Positions 27,965 through 34,835 of a stretch of 64,000 bases of DNA are shown piece after piece (position 1 is the stretch's first letter; each line of letters begins with the position of its first letter). Both the position numbers and the translations under genes were made by a program. This DNA comes from Streptomyces sp. NK15101. Lineage in GTDB: Bacteria > Actinomycetota > Actinomycetes > Streptomycetales > Streptomycetaceae. Under the pieces are notes generated by a model, which had not been told where the DNA came from, made no database searches, and saw nothing but the letters and a program-made list of their open reading frames with translations. The DNA is taken from the NCBI RefSeq assembly GCF_020400725.1, contig NZ_JAINVG010000009.1, positions 62,001 through 126,000 of the forward strand, in the 5' to 3' direction.

Positions 27965-28246
27965 TCAGGCGCCGTCGGTCTCCAGGAGGCGGCCGGTGCG
28001 CTCGCTCGCGCCGGTGAGGACGAGGGGGACGCCGAGGCCGGCGCACATGCGGTGGGCACGGGCGAGGGCGCTGAGGGTGGCGGGGCTGGGGTCGGCGGCC
28101 GGAACCGCGATGACGACCCGGGCGGGCCGGTGCGCCTGGACGAGGGCCTCGATCCGGAGGGCCGCCGCGGCGCGGTTGGTGACGTCCAGGTCGCGGTGGA
28201 GCGTCACGTGCAGGGCGTCGGGGCGTACAACGTGGCTGACGAGCAA
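27965..28246 (-). CDS. STAS-domain-like protein
   Basis: 93 residues from a TTG at 28246, chosen because GGAGGG sits six bases before it; an in-frame GTG at 28279 would add 11 residues. The order strand-helix-strand (DALHVTLHRDLDVTNRAAAA, PARVVIAVPAADPSPATLSA, MCAGLGVPLVLTGASERTGR) fits a STAS anti-sigma antagonist fold. The phosphorylatable Ser normally in a DxSG motif is not evident (VPAADPSPA), so it may not be a switch of the SpoIIAA type. Confidence 0.6.
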   Translation of the reverse strand: MLVSHVVRPDALHVTLHRDLDVTNRAAAALRIEALVQAHRPARVVIAVPAADPSPATLSALARAHRMCAGLGVPLVLTGASERTGRLLETDGA

Positions 28247-28485
28247 GGTGTCCCTCCGCGCAGGACGAGGAAGGCCCACAGGTCGGACGCCGTGTGGGCG
28301 GTTCGTCCGAGGATGTCATGAGTGGCGGCCATGCGGCGTTCACGTGGTGTTCACCGCGCGGAGTGTCCGCCCGAGAACCCCTGAAGTTCACGTATATGAA
28401 TCGGTGGGGGTACGCCCTAGGGTGAGGAGGACCGGGGCGACCGGTCGAGATTTCGAACGAGACCTTCACTCACCAGGCGGTTTCC

Positions 28486-29463
28486 ATGACCCAGTTCGAC
28501 CTGTCCCTCGACCGGCTCCGCACCTACCGGAGCGCGTCCGTGGAACCCGAGGACTTCGACGCCTTCTGGACCAAGACCCTCGACGAGGCACGCGCGCACG
28601 AGCTGGACGCGCGCTTCGAGCCCGTGGTGACCGGGCTCGCCACGGTGGAGGTCTTCGACGTGACCTTCGCCGGGTTCGGCGGGCACCCGGTCAGGGGATG
28701 GTTCGTCCTGCCGGCCGGCACGACCGAACCGCTGCCCGTCGTGGTGGAGTTCCTCGGGTACGGCGGTGGGCGGGGCCTTCCGCACACCCATCTGCTCTGG
28801 GCCTCGGCCGGGTTCGCGCACTTCGTGATGGACACGCGCGGGCAGGGCAGCGGCTGGGCCACCGGTGACACCCCGGACCCGACGGGCAGCGCGCCCTCGT
28901 TCCCGGGCTTCATGACGCGGGGCATCGAGGACCCGTACTCCTACTACTACCGCCGGCTCTTCACGGACGCGGTGCGCGCCGTGGAGGCGGCCCGCTCGCA
29001 TCCGCTGGTGGACGCGGGCCGTACGGCGGTGACGGGCGGGAGCCAGGGCGGCGGCATCACGCTGGCCGTGGCGGGGCTGGTGCGGAACCTGGTGGCGGTG
29101 GCGCCGGACGTGCCGTTCCTGTGCGACTTCCCGCGCGCGACCACGATCACGGACCGCATGCCGTACCGCGAGATCGGCAACTACCTCAAGGCGCACCGCG
29201 GCCGGGTGGAGCGGGTCAGGGAGACGCTGGCCTATTTCGACGGGGTCCACTTCGCGGCCCGTGCGACGGCCCCGGCGCTGTTCTCGACGGCCCTGGAGGA
29301 CGAGACGTGCCCGCCGTCGACGGTGTTCGCGGCCTTCAACGCGTACGCCGCGGAGGAGAAGGCGATCGAGGTGTACGACTTCAACGACCACGAGGGCGGC
29401 GGCGCGTTCCAGCAGGCCGCCCAGCTCCGCTGGCTGCCGGGGAAGCTGCGTCAGGGCTCCTGA
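28486..29463 (+). CDS. Acetyl xylan esterase / cephalosporin-C deacetylase (CE7)
   Basis: 325 residues, cytoplasmic alpha/beta hydrolase of the AXE1/CE7 family, which removes acetyl groups from xylo-oligosaccharides and related esters. Markers: RGQGSGWATGDTPD, nucleophile GGSQGGG (Ser about 186), catalytic Asp in ALEDETCPPST and catalytic His in NDHEGGGA. No signal peptide. Start ATG at 28486; upstream RBS is weak. It stands alone between the STAS-like gene and the P450 unit, sharing a terminator with the latter. Confidence 0.9.
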   Translation: MTQFDLSLDRLRTYRSASVEPEDFDAFWTKTLDEARAHELDARFEPVVTGLATVEVFDVTFAGFGGHPVRGWFVLPAGTTEPLPVVVEFLGYGGGRGLPHTHLLWASAGFAHFVMDTRGQGSGWATGDTPDPTGSAPSFPGFMTRGIEDPYSYYYRRLFTDAVRAVEAARSHPLVDAGRTAVTGGSQGGGITLAVAGLVRNLVAVAPDVPFLCDFPRATTITDRMPYREIGNYLKAHRGRVERVRETLAYFDGVHFAARATAPALFSTALEDETCPPSTVFAAFNAYAAEEKAIEVYDFNDHEGGGAFQQAAQLRWLPGKLRQGS

Positions 29464-29469
29464 AACGGG

Positions 29470-29507
29470 GCCGGAGCCCGGGCCGTGCAGCGGACCCGGG
29501 CTCCGGC
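29470..29507. terminator. 13-bp perfect hairpin, bidirectional terminator
   Basis: GCCGGAGCCCGGG (29470-29482) pairs with CCCGGGCTCCGGC (29495-29507). It ends transcripts from the esterase on the left and from the P450/pentapeptide unit on the right. Confidence 0.8.
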
Positions 29508-29573
29508 GGGGTGCACGTGAGCCGCACACCGGCGTGCCGCCCGCCTCCCGGACGGGCGTCACGCTCGCTGGTT

Positions 29574-29591
29574 TCAGTGCCAGTACTTCAT
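29574..29591 (-). CDS. bytA: Biarylitide-type pentapeptide precursor MKYWH
   Basis: Minus strand, ATG AAG TAC TGG CAC TGA: five residues, MKYWH. The ATG (29591-29589) overlaps the P450 stop TGA (29590-29588), and GGAGGAGG lies seven bases upstream, inside the last P450 codons. The sequence fits MxYxH, the precursor motif of biarylitides (RiPPs such as that from Planomonospora, encoded by an 18-bp bytA), in which a P450 joins the Tyr and His/Trp side chains before the leader Met-x is removed. Tyr3 and His5 would be linked; Trp4 is the variable residue. Described precursors lie upstream of the P450 as I recall, so the downstream, coupled position is unusual. A chance match is unlikely but not excluded. 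Confidence 0.75.
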   Translation of the reverse strand: MKYWH

Positions 29592-30778
29592 GGTCGGACC
29601 TCCTCCCCCGCTCGTGGACGCAGTGTGACCTCCAAGCGGTCGAGACCACGGAGGGTCAGATTGCGCCGGTGTTCCGGTTCCGCGACGGCCCGTGCGTCCG
29701 GGTAGTCCCTGGCCAGGGCCCCGAGGACCGATCCGGCGAGCCGGATCGCCATGGACGCGCCCAGACAGGCATGGGCCCCGCGCCCGAACCCGAGGTGCGG
29801 GTTCGGGGCGCGGTCGAGTCGCAGTTCTGCGGGGTGGTCGAACCGCAGCGGGTCGTGGTTGGCCGCGCCCAGGAAGAGCGTGACCGGATCACCCGCCTTG
29901 ATGGTGACGCCACCCAGTTCGGTGTCGGTGACGCAGACCCGGGCGTCCGCCTGGACCGGTGCGTCGTACCGGATGAGTTCGTCCACGGCCGGGGCCGGGC
30001 TCGCCCGGAACGCGTCGAGCGCGCCGGGGGCGGTGAGGAGAGCGGCCGCGGCGTTGCCGAGGAACCGTGAGGCGGATTCGTAGCCCGCGTGGAGGACGGC
30101 CCGCAGACTGTTCCGCAGAACCGTTTCTGCCACGCCGCTTTCCGCCGCGTGCTCGGCCACGTGGGCGATGAGCCCCTCCTTCGGCGGGTCCGCGAGCCAT
30201 CCGCCGGCGTACTCCGCGAGTCGGGCCCGGGCCGCGACGGCGGGCTCGTGCTTCTCGGGCCACAGCCCGGCGTCCATGCCGTCGACGACGGTACGGGACA
30301 TGGGCACGAACCAGTCGAGTTCGGGGGCGGGGACACCGAGGAAGGCGGTGACGAAGCGGAGGGCGACCGGTTCGGCGAGCTCTCCGACGAAGTCGAAGGA
30401 AGGCCGTTCGGCCAGCTCGGCGAGCAGGTCCGCGATCCGGTGCTCCAGACCGTCGTGCAGGGCCCGGCGGTCCTGGGCGCGGAAGCCGTCGAGCAGCAGG
30501 TGCCGGATGGCGGTGTGCTCCGGCGGGTCGAGGGTCTGGACGCTCAGCAGCGGTGCGGGGATGTCCTCGCCCGCGCGCCGCCAGTCGGAGGCGAACCGGT
30601 TGCCGTCCGTGAGGACCGCGAGGCAGTCGGCATGGCGGGTCAGGACCCAGGAGCCGAGCGGTTCGTGCCAGAAGACCGGCGCGGTCTCCCGCAGGTGCGC
30701 GTAGGCCGGGTAGGGGTTCCGCAGGATCGACGGACGGGCCAGATCCAGGATCGGGTCCACGGCTGCCGCTTGCTCCAC
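29588..30778 (-). CDS. bytO: Cytochrome P450, probable biarylitide cross-linking enzyme
   Basis: 396 residues from GTG at 30778 (AGGGGAG seven bases upstream). Heme-binding loop HLGFGRGAHACLGASMA gives the Cys ligand. The K-helix ExxR is in DELIRYDAP. The I-helix region is LHAGYESASR: the usual acid-alcohol pair (E/D-T) is replaced by Glu-Ser, which suggests chemistry other than plain hydroxylation. No ferredoxin gene is nearby. The pentapeptide MKYWH begins at its stop codon, which argues for a C-C or C-N cross-linking role on that peptide. Other P450 functions remain possible until tested. Confidence 0.82.
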   Translation of the reverse strand: MEQAAAVDPILDLARPSILRNPYPAYAHLRETAPVFWHEPLGSWVLTRHADCLAVLTDGNRFASDWRRAGEDIPAPLLSVQTLDPPEHTAIRHLLLDGFRAQDRRALHDGLEHRIADLLAELAERPSFDFVGELAEPVALRFVTAFLGVPAPELDWFVPMSRTVVDGMDAGLWPEKHEPAVAARARLAEYAGGWLADPPKEGLIAHVAEHAAESGVAETVLRNSLRAVLHAGYESASRFLGNAAAALLTAPGALDAFRASPAPAVDELIRYDAPVQADARVCVTDTELGGVTIKAGDPVTLFLGAANHDPLRFDHPAELRLDRAPNPHLGFGRGAHACLGASMAIRLAGSVLGALARDYPDARAVAEPEHRRNLTLRGLDRLEVTLRPRAGEEVRP

Positions 30779-30840
30779 GAAACGTCTCCCCTGCGCATCG
30801 GGCCTGGTTGAGGCCTTGGCTGCTTACCGAGTCGATCGCA

Positions 30841-30902
30841 CGAGGCGCCGGATCACCGGTGGGTGAACGCCTCGTTGGTGTCTCACCGGCGGTTCGCCGG
30901 TG
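30841..30902. promoter_or_regulatory. Inverted repeats in the divergent P450 promoter region
   Basis: Two dyads lie between the divergent P450 genes: CGAGGCG (30841-30847) with CGCCTCG (30868-30874), enclosing TCACCGGTGGGTGA, and CACCGGCG / CGCCGGTG (30884-30902, three-base loop). Either could bind a regulator controlling both units; no regulator gene is adjacent. Confidence 0.4.
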
Positions 30903-31013
30903 CCTCCCCGTACATCATCCGAGCCGAGCGCCGGTGACGCTACCACGCAACTGGGGCGGCTGGTATGACTACCTGCCTCAGATCTTTCACAAAGCTCCGG
31001 GGAGTTACGGAAG

Positions 31014-32240
31014 ATGACCGGCCAAGACCAGACAATCGTTCACGATGTCCCGGTAAACGTTGCTCAACAGCCCAACCCCTACCCGCTCTTCGAACGCATC
31101 CGTGAGCACGGCGTCGTCCAGCGCGTCCGGCTGAATCCCGCTCTTGAAGTCTGGATGGTCACCGGATACGACGAGGCGGTGGCCGCGCTCACCGACCCGC
31201 GCCTCAGCAGCAGCCCCGTCGGGGTCGCCGGCCTCGAGGAGGAGATGGCCCACCAGGAGCGCACCAACGTCCTGATGGCCAGCATGCTCGTGGCCGACGG
31301 CGAGGACCACACCCGGCTGCGCAACCTCGTCTCGAAGGCCTTCACCTTCCGGCGCGTGGAGCAGCTCGCACCCCGCGTCCAGGCGCACACCGACGCCTTC
31401 CTCGACGCGATCGCCCAGCGCGGATCAGCCGATCTGGTCGCGGAGTTCGCGCTGCCGCTGCCGATGGCCGTGCTCGGCGAACTCATCGGCATCCCGGCCG
31501 AGGGGCAGCCGGACTTCGCCCGTCTCGCGGTCGGCCTGATCATGCCGCCCAACACCCCGGAGCGGCTCGCCAAGGGAGCACGGGCCCGCGCCGAACTCAC
31601 CGAGTTCTTCGAGCCGTTGATCGCCGCGCGCAAGGCCGACCCGAAGGACGACCTGCTGAGCGCGCTCTGCGCCGCGCAGGCCGAGGAGAAGATCAGCGAC
31701 CGTGAGCTGACGGCCATGGCCATCCTGCTCACGCTCGCCGGCCACGAGACGACGGCGAGCCTCATCGCGAACGGCGTCCACGCCCTCCTTCGCCACCCGG
31801 AGCAGTTCGCCGCGCTGCGCGACGACCCCTCGCTGCTGCCCGGCGCGATCGAGGAACTCCTGCGCTACGAGGGCCCGGTGAGCCGGGGCGTCGCGCGCTT
31901 CACGGTCGACGCGTACGAGATCGGCGGGGTCACCGTCCCGCCCGGCGAGATGATCATCATCGGGCTCGCCGCGGCCAACCGCGACCCCGCGCGCTACGAC
32001 CGTCCCGACATCCTCGACGTGGCCCGTCGCGAGGTGCCGCAACAGCTCGCCTTCGGTCACGGTGTGCACTTCTGCCTGGGCGCCCCGCTGGCCCGCGCCG
32101 AGGCCAGGATCGCCATCGGCACCCTGCTGCGGCGCTTCCCCGACCTGCGGCTCGCCGACCCGGACGCGGACCTGAGCCGGCGCGAGGGCATCCTGCGCGG
32201 CATGGCGACGCTGCCGGTGACCTTCACCCCGCAGGCGTGA
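31014..32240 (+). CDS. Cytochrome P450 (CYP107-like)
   Basis: 408 residues. All landmarks are standard: I-helix LTLAGHETTASLIANG with the Thr pair, ExxR in EELLRYEGPV, and heme loop QLAFGHGVHFCLGAPLARAE. The fold start NPYPLFERIREHG is typical of class I bacterial P450s. ATG at 31014 has GGGGAG nine bases upstream. It overlaps a methyltransferase gene by four bases (GTGA), suggesting sequential oxidation and methylation of one small molecule. Whether it works with the divergent pentapeptide unit is unknown. Confidence 0.92.
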   Translation: MTGQDQTIVHDVPVNVAQQPNPYPLFERIREHGVVQRVRLNPALEVWMVTGYDEAVAALTDPRLSSSPVGVAGLEEEMAHQERTNVLMASMLVADGEDHTRLRNLVSKAFTFRRVEQLAPRVQAHTDAFLDAIAQRGSADLVAEFALPLPMAVLGELIGIPAEGQPDFARLAVGLIMPPNTPERLAKGARARAELTEFFEPLIAARKADPKDDLLSALCAAQAEEKISDRELTAMAILLTLAGHETTASLIANGVHALLRHPEQFAALRDDPSLLPGAIEELLRYEGPVSRGVARFTVDAYEIGGVTVPPGEMIIIGLAAANRDPARYDRPDILDVARREVPQQLAFGHGVHFCLGAPLARAEARIAIGTLLRRFPDLRLADPDADLSRREGILRGMATLPVTFTPQA

Positions 32241-33031
32241 GGGGGGCGACGGTGACCTCCTCCTCTCCGGCCGCCCGCCCGGTGGCGGAGTTCGACGAGA
32301 TCGCCCCGGGGTACGACGAGTCGCGCGGCGGTACGGCGCGTGCCGCCGGTTTCGCGGAGCAGCTGGTGCCGCTGCTCGACCCGGCGCGCCCGGTGCTCGA
32401 CATCGGCGTCGGGACGGGCATCGTGGCGGCCGAACTGACGGCGCGCGGCCACACCGTGTACGGCGTCGACCTCTCGCCCGGGATGCTCGCGCGGGCGAGG
32501 GCCCGGCTCGGCACGCGGGTGGCGGTGGGCGACGCCTGCCGGCTGCCCGTGCGGAGCGGATCCGTGGACCAGGCCGTCTCGACCTGGTTGCTGCACGCGG
32601 GCCCGGACAACCGGGCCGTGCTGGCCGAGGTCGCGCGGGTCCTGCGGCCGGGCGGGCGCTATCTGGTGATTCCGGCGGGCGGGACGCGCCCGGCGGACGA
32701 CATCGGGGTCCTCGTCGGGGAGTTGGAGGACCGTCTCGATCCGGAGGGCGGCCGTCGCGACGGGCCGGAGTGGCTGGCCCCGATCGGCGCGGCGCACGGC
32801 CTCGTCTACGAGGGGACGGCCTCGGAACGCCCCACGTCCTTCCCCGTGTCGCCGCGGGCGATGGCCGAGTCGCTGACGCGCGGTCTGTTCACCGGCGCCT
32901 GGGCGGTGGGCGGCGAGGCCACCCGTCTGGTCGACGAGACCAGGTCCCGCCTGCTGGCCCTGCCCGATCCGGACGTTCCCCGGGTCCGGGAGGCGGCGGA
33001 CGTCGTCCTGGTCTTCAGCCGACGGGCCTGA
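32237..33031 (+). CDS. Class I SAM-dependent methyltransferase
   Basis: 264 residues from the GTG overlapping the P450 stop; an in-frame GTG at 32252, after a GGGGGG run, is an alternative start. Motif I for SAM binding is VLDIGVGTGIVAAEL, then the acidic residue in VYGVDLSPGMLARA, post-motif VAVGDACRLPVRSGSVDQAV and LRPGGRYLVIPAG. Methyltransf_11/25 type; substrate unknown but probably the product of the coupled P450. Confidence 0.9.
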   Translation: MRGATVTSSSPAARPVAEFDEIAPGYDESRGGTARAAGFAEQLVPLLDPARPVLDIGVGTGIVAAELTARGHTVYGVDLSPGMLARARARLGTRVAVGDACRLPVRSGSVDQAVSTWLLHAGPDNRAVLAEVARVLRPGGRYLVIPAGGTRPADDIGVLVGELEDRLDPEGGRRDGPEWLAPIGAAHGLVYEGTASERPTSFPVSPRAMAESLTRGLFTGAWAVGGEATRLVDETRSRLLALPDPDVPRVREAADVVLVFSRRA

Positions 33032-33294
33032 CGGGGCGACCCGTCGCGGGCCCGAGCCCGGCGGGGCGACTCCCCGGCCCACCCGCCGTGTGGGCGATCG
33101 TCCCGCAGGGCGGGACGGGTGGGCACACGGGACGGCGCCCATAGCGGGGCCTCCGCGTTCCGCGCCCGGACCCGCACCACCGGGGAGCCGTGCACGGGGT
33201 GCGGGTCCAGGCGCGGGAGCCTCGGGCGCCGGCAGGGGCGCCGTCCGTTGTGCCCCAGCGGAACGACTGCCCACAACGGCGGTGGGCGGGCCCG

Positions 33295-34206
33295 TCAGGC
33301 GCGGCCGCGCAGTGCCGCCGCGTAGGCCTCGTCCGGGTCGAGGCGGCGGAGCTCCTCGGCGATCAGTTCCGCGGTGGTCCGGACCTTCAGGGCGAGGACC
33401 CTGCCGGGCTGGCCGGGAATGGCGAGGTGCGCGACCGGGCCCTCGGGCCGGTCGATGCGGATCTCGCCGTCGGGGGTGCCCATGCGGACGGCCGTGACGA
33501 CGGGGCCGTCGGTGACGACCCGGTCGACGGGGACGCCGAGCCGGACCTCGAACCAGCGGGCCAGGAGTTCGGCGCTGGGGTTCTCCGCCTCGCTCTCGAC
33601 GGCGGCGGAGGTGATGGTGAGCGGTGCCTGGTCGAGGGCGGCGGCCAGCATCGAGCGCCACGGGGTGAGCCGGGTCCAGGCGAGGTCGGTGTCGCCGGGT
33701 GCGTACGAGGCGGCGCGCTTCTCCAGCGCGGTGAGGGGGTCCTCGACCGCGTACATGTCGGTGATGCGGCGCTGTGCGAGCGAGCCCAGCGGGTCCCGGG
33801 AGGGCACTTCGGGGGCGTCGACGGGCCACCAGACGACGACGGGCGCGTCCGGCAGGAGCAGCGGCAGGACCACGGAGTCGGCGCGGGCGCCGACCTCGCC
33901 GTACAGCCGGAGCAGGACCGTCTCGCCCGAGCCGGCGTCGGTGCCGAGCCGGACCTCCGCGTCGAGCCGGGTCACCTGCCGCTCGCGCGGGGTGCGGGCG
34001 TGCCGCTTGATGACGACGAGGGTGCGGGAGGGGTGTTCCCGGGACGCCTCGTTGGCCGCCTTGACGGAGTCGTACGCGTTCTCCTCGTCGGTGACGACGA
34101 CGAGGGTGAGCACGGCGCCGACGGCGGGGGTGCCGACGGCCCTGCGACCCTGCAGGATCGCCTTGTTGATCTTGCTGGAGTCGGTGTCCGTCAGATCGAT
34201 CTTCAT
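33295..34206 (-). CDS. opcA: Glucose-6-phosphate dehydrogenase assembly protein OpcA
   Basis: 303 residues. The N-terminus MKIDLTDTDSSKINKAILQG, then RRAVGTPAVGAVLTLVVVT is typical of actinobacterial OpcA, as is VVVWWPVDAPEVPSRDPLG. OpcA activates G6PDH (Zwf) at the oxidative pentose phosphate entry. Here it stands alone, with no zwf, tal, tkt or devB next to it, whereas Streptomyces usually has zwf-opcA pairs; this is likely an additional copy. The 33032-33294 gap downstream holds only weak stem-loops. Confidence 0.88.
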   Translation of the reverse strand: MKIDLTDTDSSKINKAILQGRRAVGTPAVGAVLTLVVVTDEENAYDSVKAANEASREHPSRTLVVIKRHARTPRERQVTRLDAEVRLGTDAGSGETVLLRLYGEVGARADSVVLPLLLPDAPVVVWWPVDAPEVPSRDPLGSLAQRRITDMYAVEDPLTALEKRAASYAPGDTDLAWTRLTPWRSMLAAALDQAPLTITSAAVESEAENPSAELLARWFEVRLGVPVDRVVTDGPVVTAVRMGTPDGEIRIDRPEGPVAHLAIPGQPGRVLALKVRTTAELIAEELRRLDPDEAYAAALRGRA

Positions 34207-34289
34207 GTGCGGCGCCCGTCCCTTCCTTCTGCGGCGAGCCTAACCCTCCCGCGCGGCGGACGCGTGCGGGTCCCCCGGCGGAAGTCGTC

Positions 34290-34835
34290 CTACGCGGGCT
34301 CCGATTCCGCGTCGGGAGCCGGGTCGGGGGACGCCTGCTCCTGGGCACGGCGGCCGACGACGGCCGCGGCGGCGATCGCCGTGCCGAGGAAGGCGACGGC
34401 CACCACCCAGGGGCGGTCGAGGACGTGCCCGGTGGCGTGGTCCAGGGAGTAGCGTCCGGCGCCGGTGATGCCGATCCCGGCGGCCGTGAAGCCGAGGAAG
34501 GCCGGGTACTCGTAGCCGCCGCCCTGGGCGAAGAAGCCGGCCGGGGCGTGGACGGCGACGGCTCCCGCCATGGCGCCCGCCGCTGCGGCGCCGGCGGCCG
34601 GGGTGGCGAGGCCGAGTGCGAGGAGGACGCCGCCGCCCGCCTCGCCGAGACCGGCGGCGATCGCGCTCTGGCGGCCCGGGTTGAAGCCCATGGCCTCCAT
34701 CGCCTTGGTGGTGCCCTCGAGACCGCCGCCCCCGAACCAGCCGAGGAGCTTCTGCGTGCCGTGCGCGGCGAGGACGGCGCCGGTGCCGGCTCTCAGCACG
34801 AGCAGCCCGAGATCGCGTCGGTTGAGGTGGGCCAT
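34290..34835 (-). CDS. DoxX family membrane protein
   Basis: 181 residues. Four helices in the DoxX layout: LGLLVLRAGTGAVLAAHGTQ with KLLGWFGG, IAAGLGEAGGGVLLALG, AAGAMAGAVAVHAPAGFF and FLGFTAAGIGITGAGR. An extra C-terminal helix (VAVAFLGTAIAAAAVVG) and acidic tail follow. Start ATG at 34835 with GGAG six bases upstream. DoxX proteins sit in the membrane and have been linked to thiosulfate oxidation or redox stress; no partner gene is adjacent. Confidence 0.88.
   Translation of the reverse strand: MAHLNRRDLGLLVLRAGTGAVLAAHGTQKLLGWFGGGGLEGTTKAMEAMGFNPGRQSAIAAGLGEAGGGVLLALGLATPAAGAAAAGAMAGAVAVHAPAGFFAQGGGYEYPAFLGFTAAGIGITGAGRYSLDHATGHVLDRPWVVAVAFLGTAIAAAAVVGRRAQEQASPDPAPDAESEPA

What the first reader, a model, noticed from the sequence alone, without database searches (positions are those of the whole stretch)
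29574..30778. Minimal RiPP locus: MKYWH pentapeptide gene overlapping the stop of its P450
An 18-bp reading frame (MKYWH) with a strong GGAGGAGG site starts inside the stop codon of a P450 gene. MxYxH is the biarylitide precursor motif, and the partner enzyme of that class is a P450. The order is P450 then precursor, with a four-base ATGA overlap, and the P450 I-helix has Glu-Ser in place of the usual acid-Thr pair. A terminator follows 67 bases downstream, so this is a complete two-gene transcript. Automatic annotation would miss the peptide. Predicted product: a Tyr3-His5 (or Tyr3-Trp4) cross-linked short peptide.
Basis: partly seen in the sequence, partly recalled or inferred. Interest (0 to 1): 0.93.

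Follow-up and report, generated by a model that had tools for sequence, protein, structure and literature searches.

The report
Five-residue peptide with two P450s
In a Streptomyces genome, an 18-base gene for the five-residue peptide MKYWH overlaps the end of the gene for a cytochrome P450 that is predicted to staple the peptide's tyrosine to its histidine, and a second P450 that likely modifies the stapled product further lies beside each of the 28 YWH-type peptide genes examined here, so the natural product is probably more elaborate than the simple ring so far made in the test tube.

Summary
MKYWH (29574-29591, -) has a GGAGGAGG site and overlaps the stop of a P450 (29588-30778, -) by ATGA. 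Its 18 bases are invariant in 21 Streptomyces loci; only 4 of 60 columns downstream are. The P450 falls among biarylitide P450s and shares V169/A231/H234/E238/S239 with P450Blt, so the 'odd' Glu-Ser pair is the P450Blt signature. The kind is known: AchB, the P450 of an MKYWH locus (inferred here to be L029's, 54% identical), joins Tyr to His-Ntau in vitro (PMC13417212). Relatives (at least 45% identical) lie beside 28 of 28 MKYWH/MRYWH loci, 0 of 49 with other motifs and 0 of 5 scored without one, in two gene orders. Copies at least 94% identical occur in exactly the 14 of 392 Streptomyces-genus genomes with the MKYWH gene. In the Actinomadura family, close relatives occur in exactly the 5 of 341 genomes with MKYWH loci. 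I read it as a tailoring enzyme of YWH biarylitides (inferred, untested), so 'minimal two-gene locus' is probably wrong. I could not see the 2026 paper's supplement, which may list this gene.

The parts
29574..29591 (-). 18-bp gene for the precursor pentapeptide MKYWH
   Evidence: Sequence; 18 of 18 columns invariant in 21 Streptomyces loci; 18-mer in 14 of 392 genus genomes, all beside this P450
29599..29606 (-). Ribosome-binding site GGAGGAGG of the pentapeptide gene, inside the last codons of the P450 gene
   Evidence: Sequence; site aligned in 21 loci
29588..30778 (-). P450a, biarylitide-type P450 (396 aa), predicted Tyr3-His5 cross-linking enzyme
   Evidence: Pfam p450; PDB sequence matches 22yx, 9m47, 9eby, 8spp/9duj, 8spc, 8u2m; tree; P450Blt residues
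29470..29507 (-). Stable hairpin after the pentapeptide gene, candidate terminator between convergent genes, no T-run
   Evidence: Folding z = -4.65 for 29460-29574; no terminator-like site by scan
30779..31013 (.). 235-bp divergent intergenic region between the two P450 genes, presumably with both promoters
   Evidence: Alignment of 20 Streptomyces loci with conserved blocks; no sigma-70-like site found
31014..32240 (+). P450b, canonical P450 (408 aa, AGHETT), predicted tailoring enzyme of the cross-linked YWH peptide
   Evidence: 28 of 28 YWH loci, 0 of 49 others; same 14 of 392 genomes; same 5 of 341 genomes; trees; hydroxylase relatives incl. PikC
32237..33031 (+). Class I SAM methyltransferase overlapping the P450b stop by GTGA; optional member, role inferred
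   Evidence: Pfam Methyltransf_11 and related; not found in L011, L012, L015, L017; only weak matches to solved structures

Best explanation
By motif and phylogeny this is a biarylitide-type RiPP locus in which the 18-base MKYWH gene overlaps the stop of a P450 (29588-30778) that is predicted to cross-link Tyr3 to His5, likely Tyr ring carbon to His nitrogen, while a divergent second P450 (31014-32240) likely oxidises the cross-linked YWH core further. Step 1: P450a and MKYWH would be translated in a coupled way from one transcript (inferred from ATGA and the internal ribosome-binding site). Step 2: P450a would remove two hydrogens to close the Tyr-X-His ring (shown in vitro for AchB on Nle-KYWH, PMC13417212; not for this enzyme). 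Step 3: P450b, which has the ordinary acid-Thr pair, would add an oxygen or a second bond, most plausibly at Trp4 (inferred from co-occurrence with YWH; untested). Step 4: a host protease would remove the MK leader (inferred; I recognised no dedicated protease gene). Step 5: the methyltransferase, where present, would methylate the product (inferred by analogy with myxarylin).
For: Conserved 18-mer. P450 clade: of 54 rows on the window's side of a branch with SH-aLRT 98, 47 have a pentapeptide gene after the P450, 1 has none found, 6 are proteins without context. P450Blt residues Q84, V169, A231, H234, E238, S239 all identical. P450b: 28 of 28 YWH loci, 0 of 49 with other motifs, 0 of 5 scored without motif, at 45% identity or more; identical genome sets 14 of 392 and 5 of 341; linked copies together in trees; in L018, L020-L022 MT, P450b, P450a and MKYWH are kept while OpcA, M20 and AXE1 of the window were not found; in L154 P450b follows the peptide gene directly.
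Against: No activity, expression or product was tested. 21 of the 28 YWH loci are one Streptomyces lineage; the independent part is 7 loci. 42 of 392 genus genomes hold unlinked P450b-like proteins of 47-53% identity, as similar as the Streptomyces and non-Streptomyces linked copies are to each other; joint grouping of the linked copies has only moderate support (91/84), and an unlinked 50% copy (L181) is their sister. Three of the 7 positions compared differ between this enzyme and L029's (AchB, inferred): 169, 231, 238. MRYWY loci also have Trp4 but no P450b (7 of 7), so Trp4 alone does not call for it. P450Blt does not tolerate Trp at position 4 (stated in PMC13417212).
Confidence: 0.72

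Rival explanations
1. A plain two-gene biarylitide locus: P450a and MKYWH make a monocyclic YWH peptide, and P450b with its methyltransferase belongs to an unrelated neighbouring pathway.
For: AchB alone cross-links Nle-KYWH in vitro (PMC13417212); P450b lies on the other strand here; P450b-like proteins of 47-53% identity occur unlinked in 42 of 392 genus genomes.
Against: P450b relatives accompany YWH loci in other genera in a different gene order, 7 of 7; genome sets coincide 14 of 14 and 5 of 5; the four genes stay together when outer neighbours change.
Confidence: 0.2
2. P450b is a second cross-linking enzyme that makes a bicyclic product (a further -2 Da), not a hydroxylase.
For: Co-occurrence with an aromatic Trp4 inside the ring; other RiPP pathways use two cross-linking P450s (recalled for atropopeptide-type pathways, not tested here).
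Against: P450b has the canonical AGHETT helix and its best solved matches are hydroxylases such as PikC.
Confidence: 0.15
3. P450a nitrates the tyrosine, as RufO does with MRYLH.
For: Several of the best PDB matches score above P450Blt, among them 8spp/9duj, RufO (PMC12186263); the genome holds a nitric oxide synthase gene.
Against: The window enzyme has Val and Ser where RufO has Asp169 and Val240 (PMC12186263); the synthase lies on another contig with no P450a/P450b/MT relative in the 4 kb locus around it.
Confidence: 0.02
4. MKYWH is a chance or purely regulatory short frame.
For: It is very short and there is no direct proof of translation.
Against: 18 of 18 bases invariant in 21 loci against 4 of 60 downstream; the same peptide, or MRYWH, at 16-52 nt from the P450 in 7 loci outside Streptomyces; same peptide is the substrate of AchB (PMC13417212).
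Confidence: 0.01

Closest known systems
AchB / MKYWH biarylitide locus of Actinomadura hibisca (PMC13417212; here L029, identity of AchB with L029's P450 inferred from species and motif)
   Same: Same precursor MKYWH, placed after the P450; P450 54% identical; cross-links Tyr to His-Ntau in vitro (paper); also has P450b
   Different: 49-nt gap instead of ATGA overlap; cluster on one strand with TylF-type and another methyltransferase and an Asp/Asn hydroxylase; I-helix Thr-Ser instead of Glu-Ser
P450Blt of Micromonospora sp. MW-13 (8u2m; here L173)
   Same: Pentapeptide substrate of MRYXH type, free of a long leader; identical residues at 84, 169, 231, 234, 238, 239
   Different: Precursor MRYLH lies before the P450; 47% identical; does not tolerate Trp4 (PMC13417212); no P450b beside it
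MRYWH locus of the same Micromonospora sp. MW-13 (L027)
   Same: P450a (59%), MRYWH after it, P450b homologue nearby
   Different: 45-nt gap, methyltransferase and Asp/Asn hydroxylase between peptide and P450b; I found no paper on it: 'MRYWH' had 0 occurrences in each of the 7 papers listed
RufO (9duj)
   Same: Homologous P450 acting on a free five-residue peptide (PMC12186263)
   Different: Nitrates instead of cross-linking; Asp169 and Val240 in place of Val and Ser (PMC12186263)
Myxarylin pathway (PMC8708641, PMC12951456; passages)
   Same: Pentapeptide, cross-linking P450 and a methyltransferase
   Different: MNYLH precursor, precursor before P450, one P450 described in the passages I saw

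Membership tests
Biarylitides | Five-residue precursor MxYxH/Y/W from an 18-bp gene | tested here: met
   MKYWH, 29574-29591
Biarylitides | Precursor gene tightly coupled to a P450 gene | tested here: met
   ATGA overlap; adjacency in 21 of 21 Streptomyces loci
Biarylitides | P450 belongs to the pentapeptide-linked P450 clade | tested here: met
   Tree of 80 rows, 4 of them outgroup; PDB sequence matches
Biarylitides | Active-site residues of a proven cross-linking enzyme (P450Blt) | tested here: met
   7 of 8 compared positions identical; position 74 is Glu instead of Val
Biarylitides | Cross-linked (-2 Da) tripeptide or pentapeptide is made | not testable with these tools
   Needs enzyme assay or LC-MS
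RufO-type nitrating P450s | Asp169 and Val240, nitric oxide synthase in the cluster | tested here: not met
   Val and Ser instead; the only synthase gene found is on another contig. Contrast: L034 has MRYLH, synthase and Glu-Val P450 together
P450b as partner of YWH biarylitides (association proposed here) | Present beside YWH loci and absent beside other biarylitide loci | tested here: met
   28 of 28, 0 of 49, 0 of 5; genome sets agree
P450b as partner of YWH biarylitides (association proposed here) | Linked copies form one clade apart from unlinked relatives | tested here: inconclusive
   One side of a branch, support 91/84; SH-aLRT 99 for a wider set; a test rejected a group from which I had left out P0064
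P450b as partner of YWH biarylitides (association proposed here) | Acts on the cross-linked peptide | not testable with these tools
   Needs enzyme assay or deletion

The most novel reading that the evidence does not exclude
MxYWH biarylitides are a two-P450 subclass: the first P450 closes the Tyr-X-His ring, and the second, an obligate and so far overlooked partner, oxidises the ring at its Trp. The monocyclic YWH made in vitro is then only an intermediate and the true metabolites are still unseen, which may also be why in vivo attempts with AchB failed. In Streptomyces, enzyme and 18-base precursor gene have merged into one coupled ATGA unit.
Probability: 0.55. Interest if true: 0.62.

Novelty: new variant of a known kind. 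Interest (0 to 1): 0.5.

Why it matters
The biological function of biarylitides is unknown and no bioactivity was detected in assays so far (PMC13417212). If the widespread MKYWH pathways need a second P450, the ring made so far is not the end product, and the gene set to express is now defined: P450a, MKYWH and P450b, with the methyltransferase where present. It also offers a simple system for asking how a P450 of the ordinary hydroxylase type recognises a three-residue ring, and how a five-codon gene is translated from inside an enzyme's stop codon.

Tried and rejected
Chance frame: rejected (one search is uninformative, pattern and reversed control each once). Nitration: rejected on residues and on the place of the synthase. 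Known RNA families in 28000-34500: no match. Sigma-70 promoters and T-run terminators in 29400-31100: none found, weak evidence in Streptomyces. Homologues of L027's Asp/Asn hydroxylase and L029's methyltransferase in the window's own genome: none found, without a positive control in those calls. Leader protease: the convergent neighbour 28486-29463 scores on PF00326 (40.2 bits, cut-off 22.6), the family of the prolyl oligopeptidase proposed in PMC12951456, but its best family is AXE1 (395.6 bits) and it was not found in L018 or L020-L022, so I do not count it. P450b identity alone (51-53%) was not taken as orthology, because 42 of 392 genus genomes hold unlinked proteins that similar; hence the trees. 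In one search a test of one clade rejected my named group (p-AU 2e-06) because I had left P0064 out of it, which falls inside, without these metagenome rows, the 13 linked rows were one side of a branch at 91/84.

Rows dropped: in the P450a tree L025 and L043 (frame broken) and ten near-identical Streptomyces rows; in the P450b trees 10 linked rows were used and 13 of 28; L023 (P450b cut by the contig end) in the intergenic alignment. The five loci scored 'no motif' were searched only 600 nt upstream and 2.5 kb downstream; one search then found MRYLH about 1.3-1.4 kb upstream in four of them (L034, L038, L155, L156), of which L038 and L156 are the same record. Absence of P450b means none at 45% identity or more; L165 has a 38% match and L164 and L021 have 30-33% ones. 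Some loci are short (L154, L034, L026, L023), so absent neighbours there weigh less. No structure prediction or fold search was run.

Full report
What is there. On the minus strand a P450 gene (29588-30778, 396 aa; P450a) ends in a stop that overlaps, by ATGA, an 18-base frame for MKYWH (29574-29591); GGAGGAGG lies seven bases before its ATG. A stable hairpin follows at 29507-29470, without a T-run. On the plus strand, 235 bases away, a second P450 (31014-32240, 408 aa; P450b) diverges and overlaps by four bases (GTGA) a class I methyltransferase (32237-33031). On either side lie an acetyl xylan esterase family gene (28486-29463) and an OpcA-like gene (33295-34206).

Is it more than chance. 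On both strands of the window there are ten ATG-started five-residue frames; this is the only one with a strong ribosome-binding site and the only one with Tyr, His or Trp at positions 3 and 5. ATGNNNTAYNNNCAYTGA occurs once in the genome, as does its reversed control, so that count alone says nothing. The MKYWH 18-mer was found in 14 of 392 Streptomyces-genus genomes and its reversed control in none; all 14 lie beside a homologue of P450a. Over 21 Streptomyces loci all 18 columns are invariant, against 34 of 60 upstream (P450 coding) and 4 of 60 downstream. In 16 of the 21 the frame starts in an ATGA overlap; L025 has the same bases but a broken P450 frame; in L018, L020 and L022 one base, and in L021 22 bases, separate stop and start. 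In the seven YWH loci outside Streptomyces the gap is 16-52 bases. Overlap is thus a feature of one lineage, not a requirement.

What P450a is. The best PDB sequence matches are 22yx, 9m47, 9eby, 8spp/9duj and 8spc, then 8u2m. PMC12186263 (passages) names 8U2M as P450Blt and 9DUJ as RufO. 8u2m is identical over 388 residues to the MRYLH-linked P450 of Micromonospora sp. MW-13 in L173. In a tree of 76 such P450s and 4 outgroup P450s, the window protein lies on a side of 54 rows (SH-aLRT 98), of which 47 have a pentapeptide gene after the P450, one has none found and six are proteins without context. Positions that PMC10929621 and PMC12186263 (passages) discuss for P450Blt (Q84, V169, A231, H234, E238, S239) are identical in the window protein (Q81, V165, A227, H230, E234, S235), as is V287; position 74 differs, Glu for Val. 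RufO's Asp169 and Val240 are absent. PMC10929621 assigns H234 a role in directing the C-N bond. L029's enzyme, which I take to be AchB, has Thr-Ser there, and differs from ours at 169, 231 and 238.

What is already known. PMC13417212 (JACS Au, July 2026; abstract, outline, Results in full, Conclusions and passages read; Introduction and Methods only in passages; [quoted passage not shown] It was the only paper in the library holding 'MKYWH'. L029, from Actinomadura hibisca NBRC 15177, carries MKYWH 49 nt after a P450 54% identical to ours, the only match at E <= 1e-60 in that genome. The window locus is a member of a known kind and may itself be in that paper's Table S1.

What seems new. P450b relatives (at least 45% identical) lie beside 28 of 28 loci with MKYWH or MRYWH, beside 0 of 49 with other motifs (MRYLH 19, MRYWY 7, MRHVH 4, MRHAH 3, MDYPH 3, MRYIH 3, MRYAY 3, MRYRH 2, five singles) and 0 of 5 scored without a motif. 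In those seven P450b is on the same strand downstream; in six of them a methyltransferase and an Asp/Asn hydroxylase lie between (Pfam checked on L027 and, for the methyltransferase, L029), and in L154 it follows the peptide gene directly. Searched the other way, copies of P450b of 94% or more occur in exactly the 14 of 392 genus genomes that hold the MKYWH gene, each within about 1.5 kb of it. Relatives of 77% or more to L029's P450b occur in exactly the 5 of 341 genomes of the Actinomadura family in which MKYWH loci were found; one of them has a further 50% copy elsewhere. Unlinked proteins of 47-53% identity occur in 42 of the 392, so trees were needed: 13 linked copies group apart from 17 unlinked ones at 91/84, moderate support; in a wider tree they share a side of a branch at SH-aLRT 99 with nine proteins of unknown context (P0011-P0013, P0015-P0019 and others). 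Two of those share a contig length with a P450a homologue (P0019 and P0229, 9,269; P0025 and P0195, 5,295), which hints at linkage.

What moves together. The window's methyltransferase was not found in L011, L012, L015 and L017, while P450b was. In L018 and L020-L022 the window's outer neighbours OpcA, M20 and AXE1 were not found, but methyltransferase, P450b, P450a and MKYWH are all there. So the unit is about four genes, and P450a, YWH gene and P450b are its common core.

Is the second P450 in print. The main text of PMC13417212 has 0 occurrences of 'methyltransferase' and 'second P450', and its one 'additional P450' is about training data. Two further library searches listed no paper that I recognised as describing it from title and abstract. 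PMC8708641 (2021, passage) states that organisms other than myxobacteria lack a methyltransferase gene in these clusters. Subscription papers and all supplements are outside what I could see.

How it most likely works. P450a and MKYWH are predicted to be made from one transcript with coupled translation. P450a closes the Tyr3-His5 ring, likely C-N as for AchB and P450Blt. P450b has a canonical helix (AGHETT) and hydroxylases including PikC among its best PDB matches, so an added oxygen is likelier than a second bond. Trp4 is the obvious site but this is inferred only from the restriction to YWH; MRYWY loci also have Trp4 yet no P450b (7 of 7), so the YWH ring as a whole is what co-occurs. A host protease would remove MK, and a methyltransferase would act last, as reported for myxarylin (PMC12951456, passages). 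The methyltransferase of L029 is closest among solved structures to 3g2m, PCZA361.24, which I recall as a glycopeptide N-methyltransferase. The window's own methyltransferase has only weak, varied matches.

Limits. Nothing here shows expression, activity or product. Most YWH loci are one Streptomyces lineage. The P450a tree leaves open how the Streptomyces and other YWH enzymes are related. The supplement that could already list P450b was not available.

Noticed in passing
L026 3541-3558 (Nocardioides speluncae): The pentapeptide frame after a 59%-identical P450 reads MRYIR (or MPMRYIR), with no aromatic residue at position 5; its P450 has Ala for the I-helix Glu. Possibly a decayed precursor, possibly a new motif that a rule asking for an aromatic at 5 would miss.
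   Followed up: partly
L034 3477-5992; also L038/L156 (same record) and L155: Nonomuraea-type loci with MRYLH about 1.3-1.4 kb before a Glu-Val (RufO-like) P450; in L034 a nitric oxide synthase gene (PF02898) lies between, so precursor and P450 are physically separated.
   Followed up: partly
L030-L033, L035-L037, L162: P450s followed by MRHVH, MRHAH or MRHIH frames with His at position 3, in L031 and L032 in two copies; six of them have Gln-Thr instead of Glu-Ser in the I-helix. PMC13417212 models His-3 systems but reports no test of them in the parts I read.
   Followed up: no
L138-L146, L165-L167: MRYIH, MRYLH and MRYWY loci often carry an Asp/Asn hydroxylase, a methyltransferase related to L027's and a sulfotransferase relative beside the P450.
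   Followed up: no
L025 6001-7177 (Streptomyces diastatochromogenes ATCC 21481): P450a is split into two frames in this assembly while MKYWH and P450b are intact; assembly error or real loss not decided.
   Followed up: no
window 30779-31013: The divergent region holds conserved blocks, among them GACGCTACCACGCAACT-like and CACCGGTG-like stretches in most of 20 Streptomyces loci; candidate promoters or regulator sites.
   Followed up: no
window 29460-29574: Three successive hairpins are predicted after the peptide gene on the minus strand (z = -4.65), more than a simple terminator needs.
   Followed up: no
G000 contig C157 57430-58491 (L182): The genome has a nitric oxide synthase gene on another contig, with no relative of P450a, P450b or the methyltransferases in the 4 kb around it.
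   Followed up: partly
window 28486-29463: The convergent acetyl xylan esterase family gene also scores above cut-off on PF00326, the family of the prolyl oligopeptidase proposed for leader removal in PMC12951456; not kept in L018 or L020-L022.
   Followed up: partly
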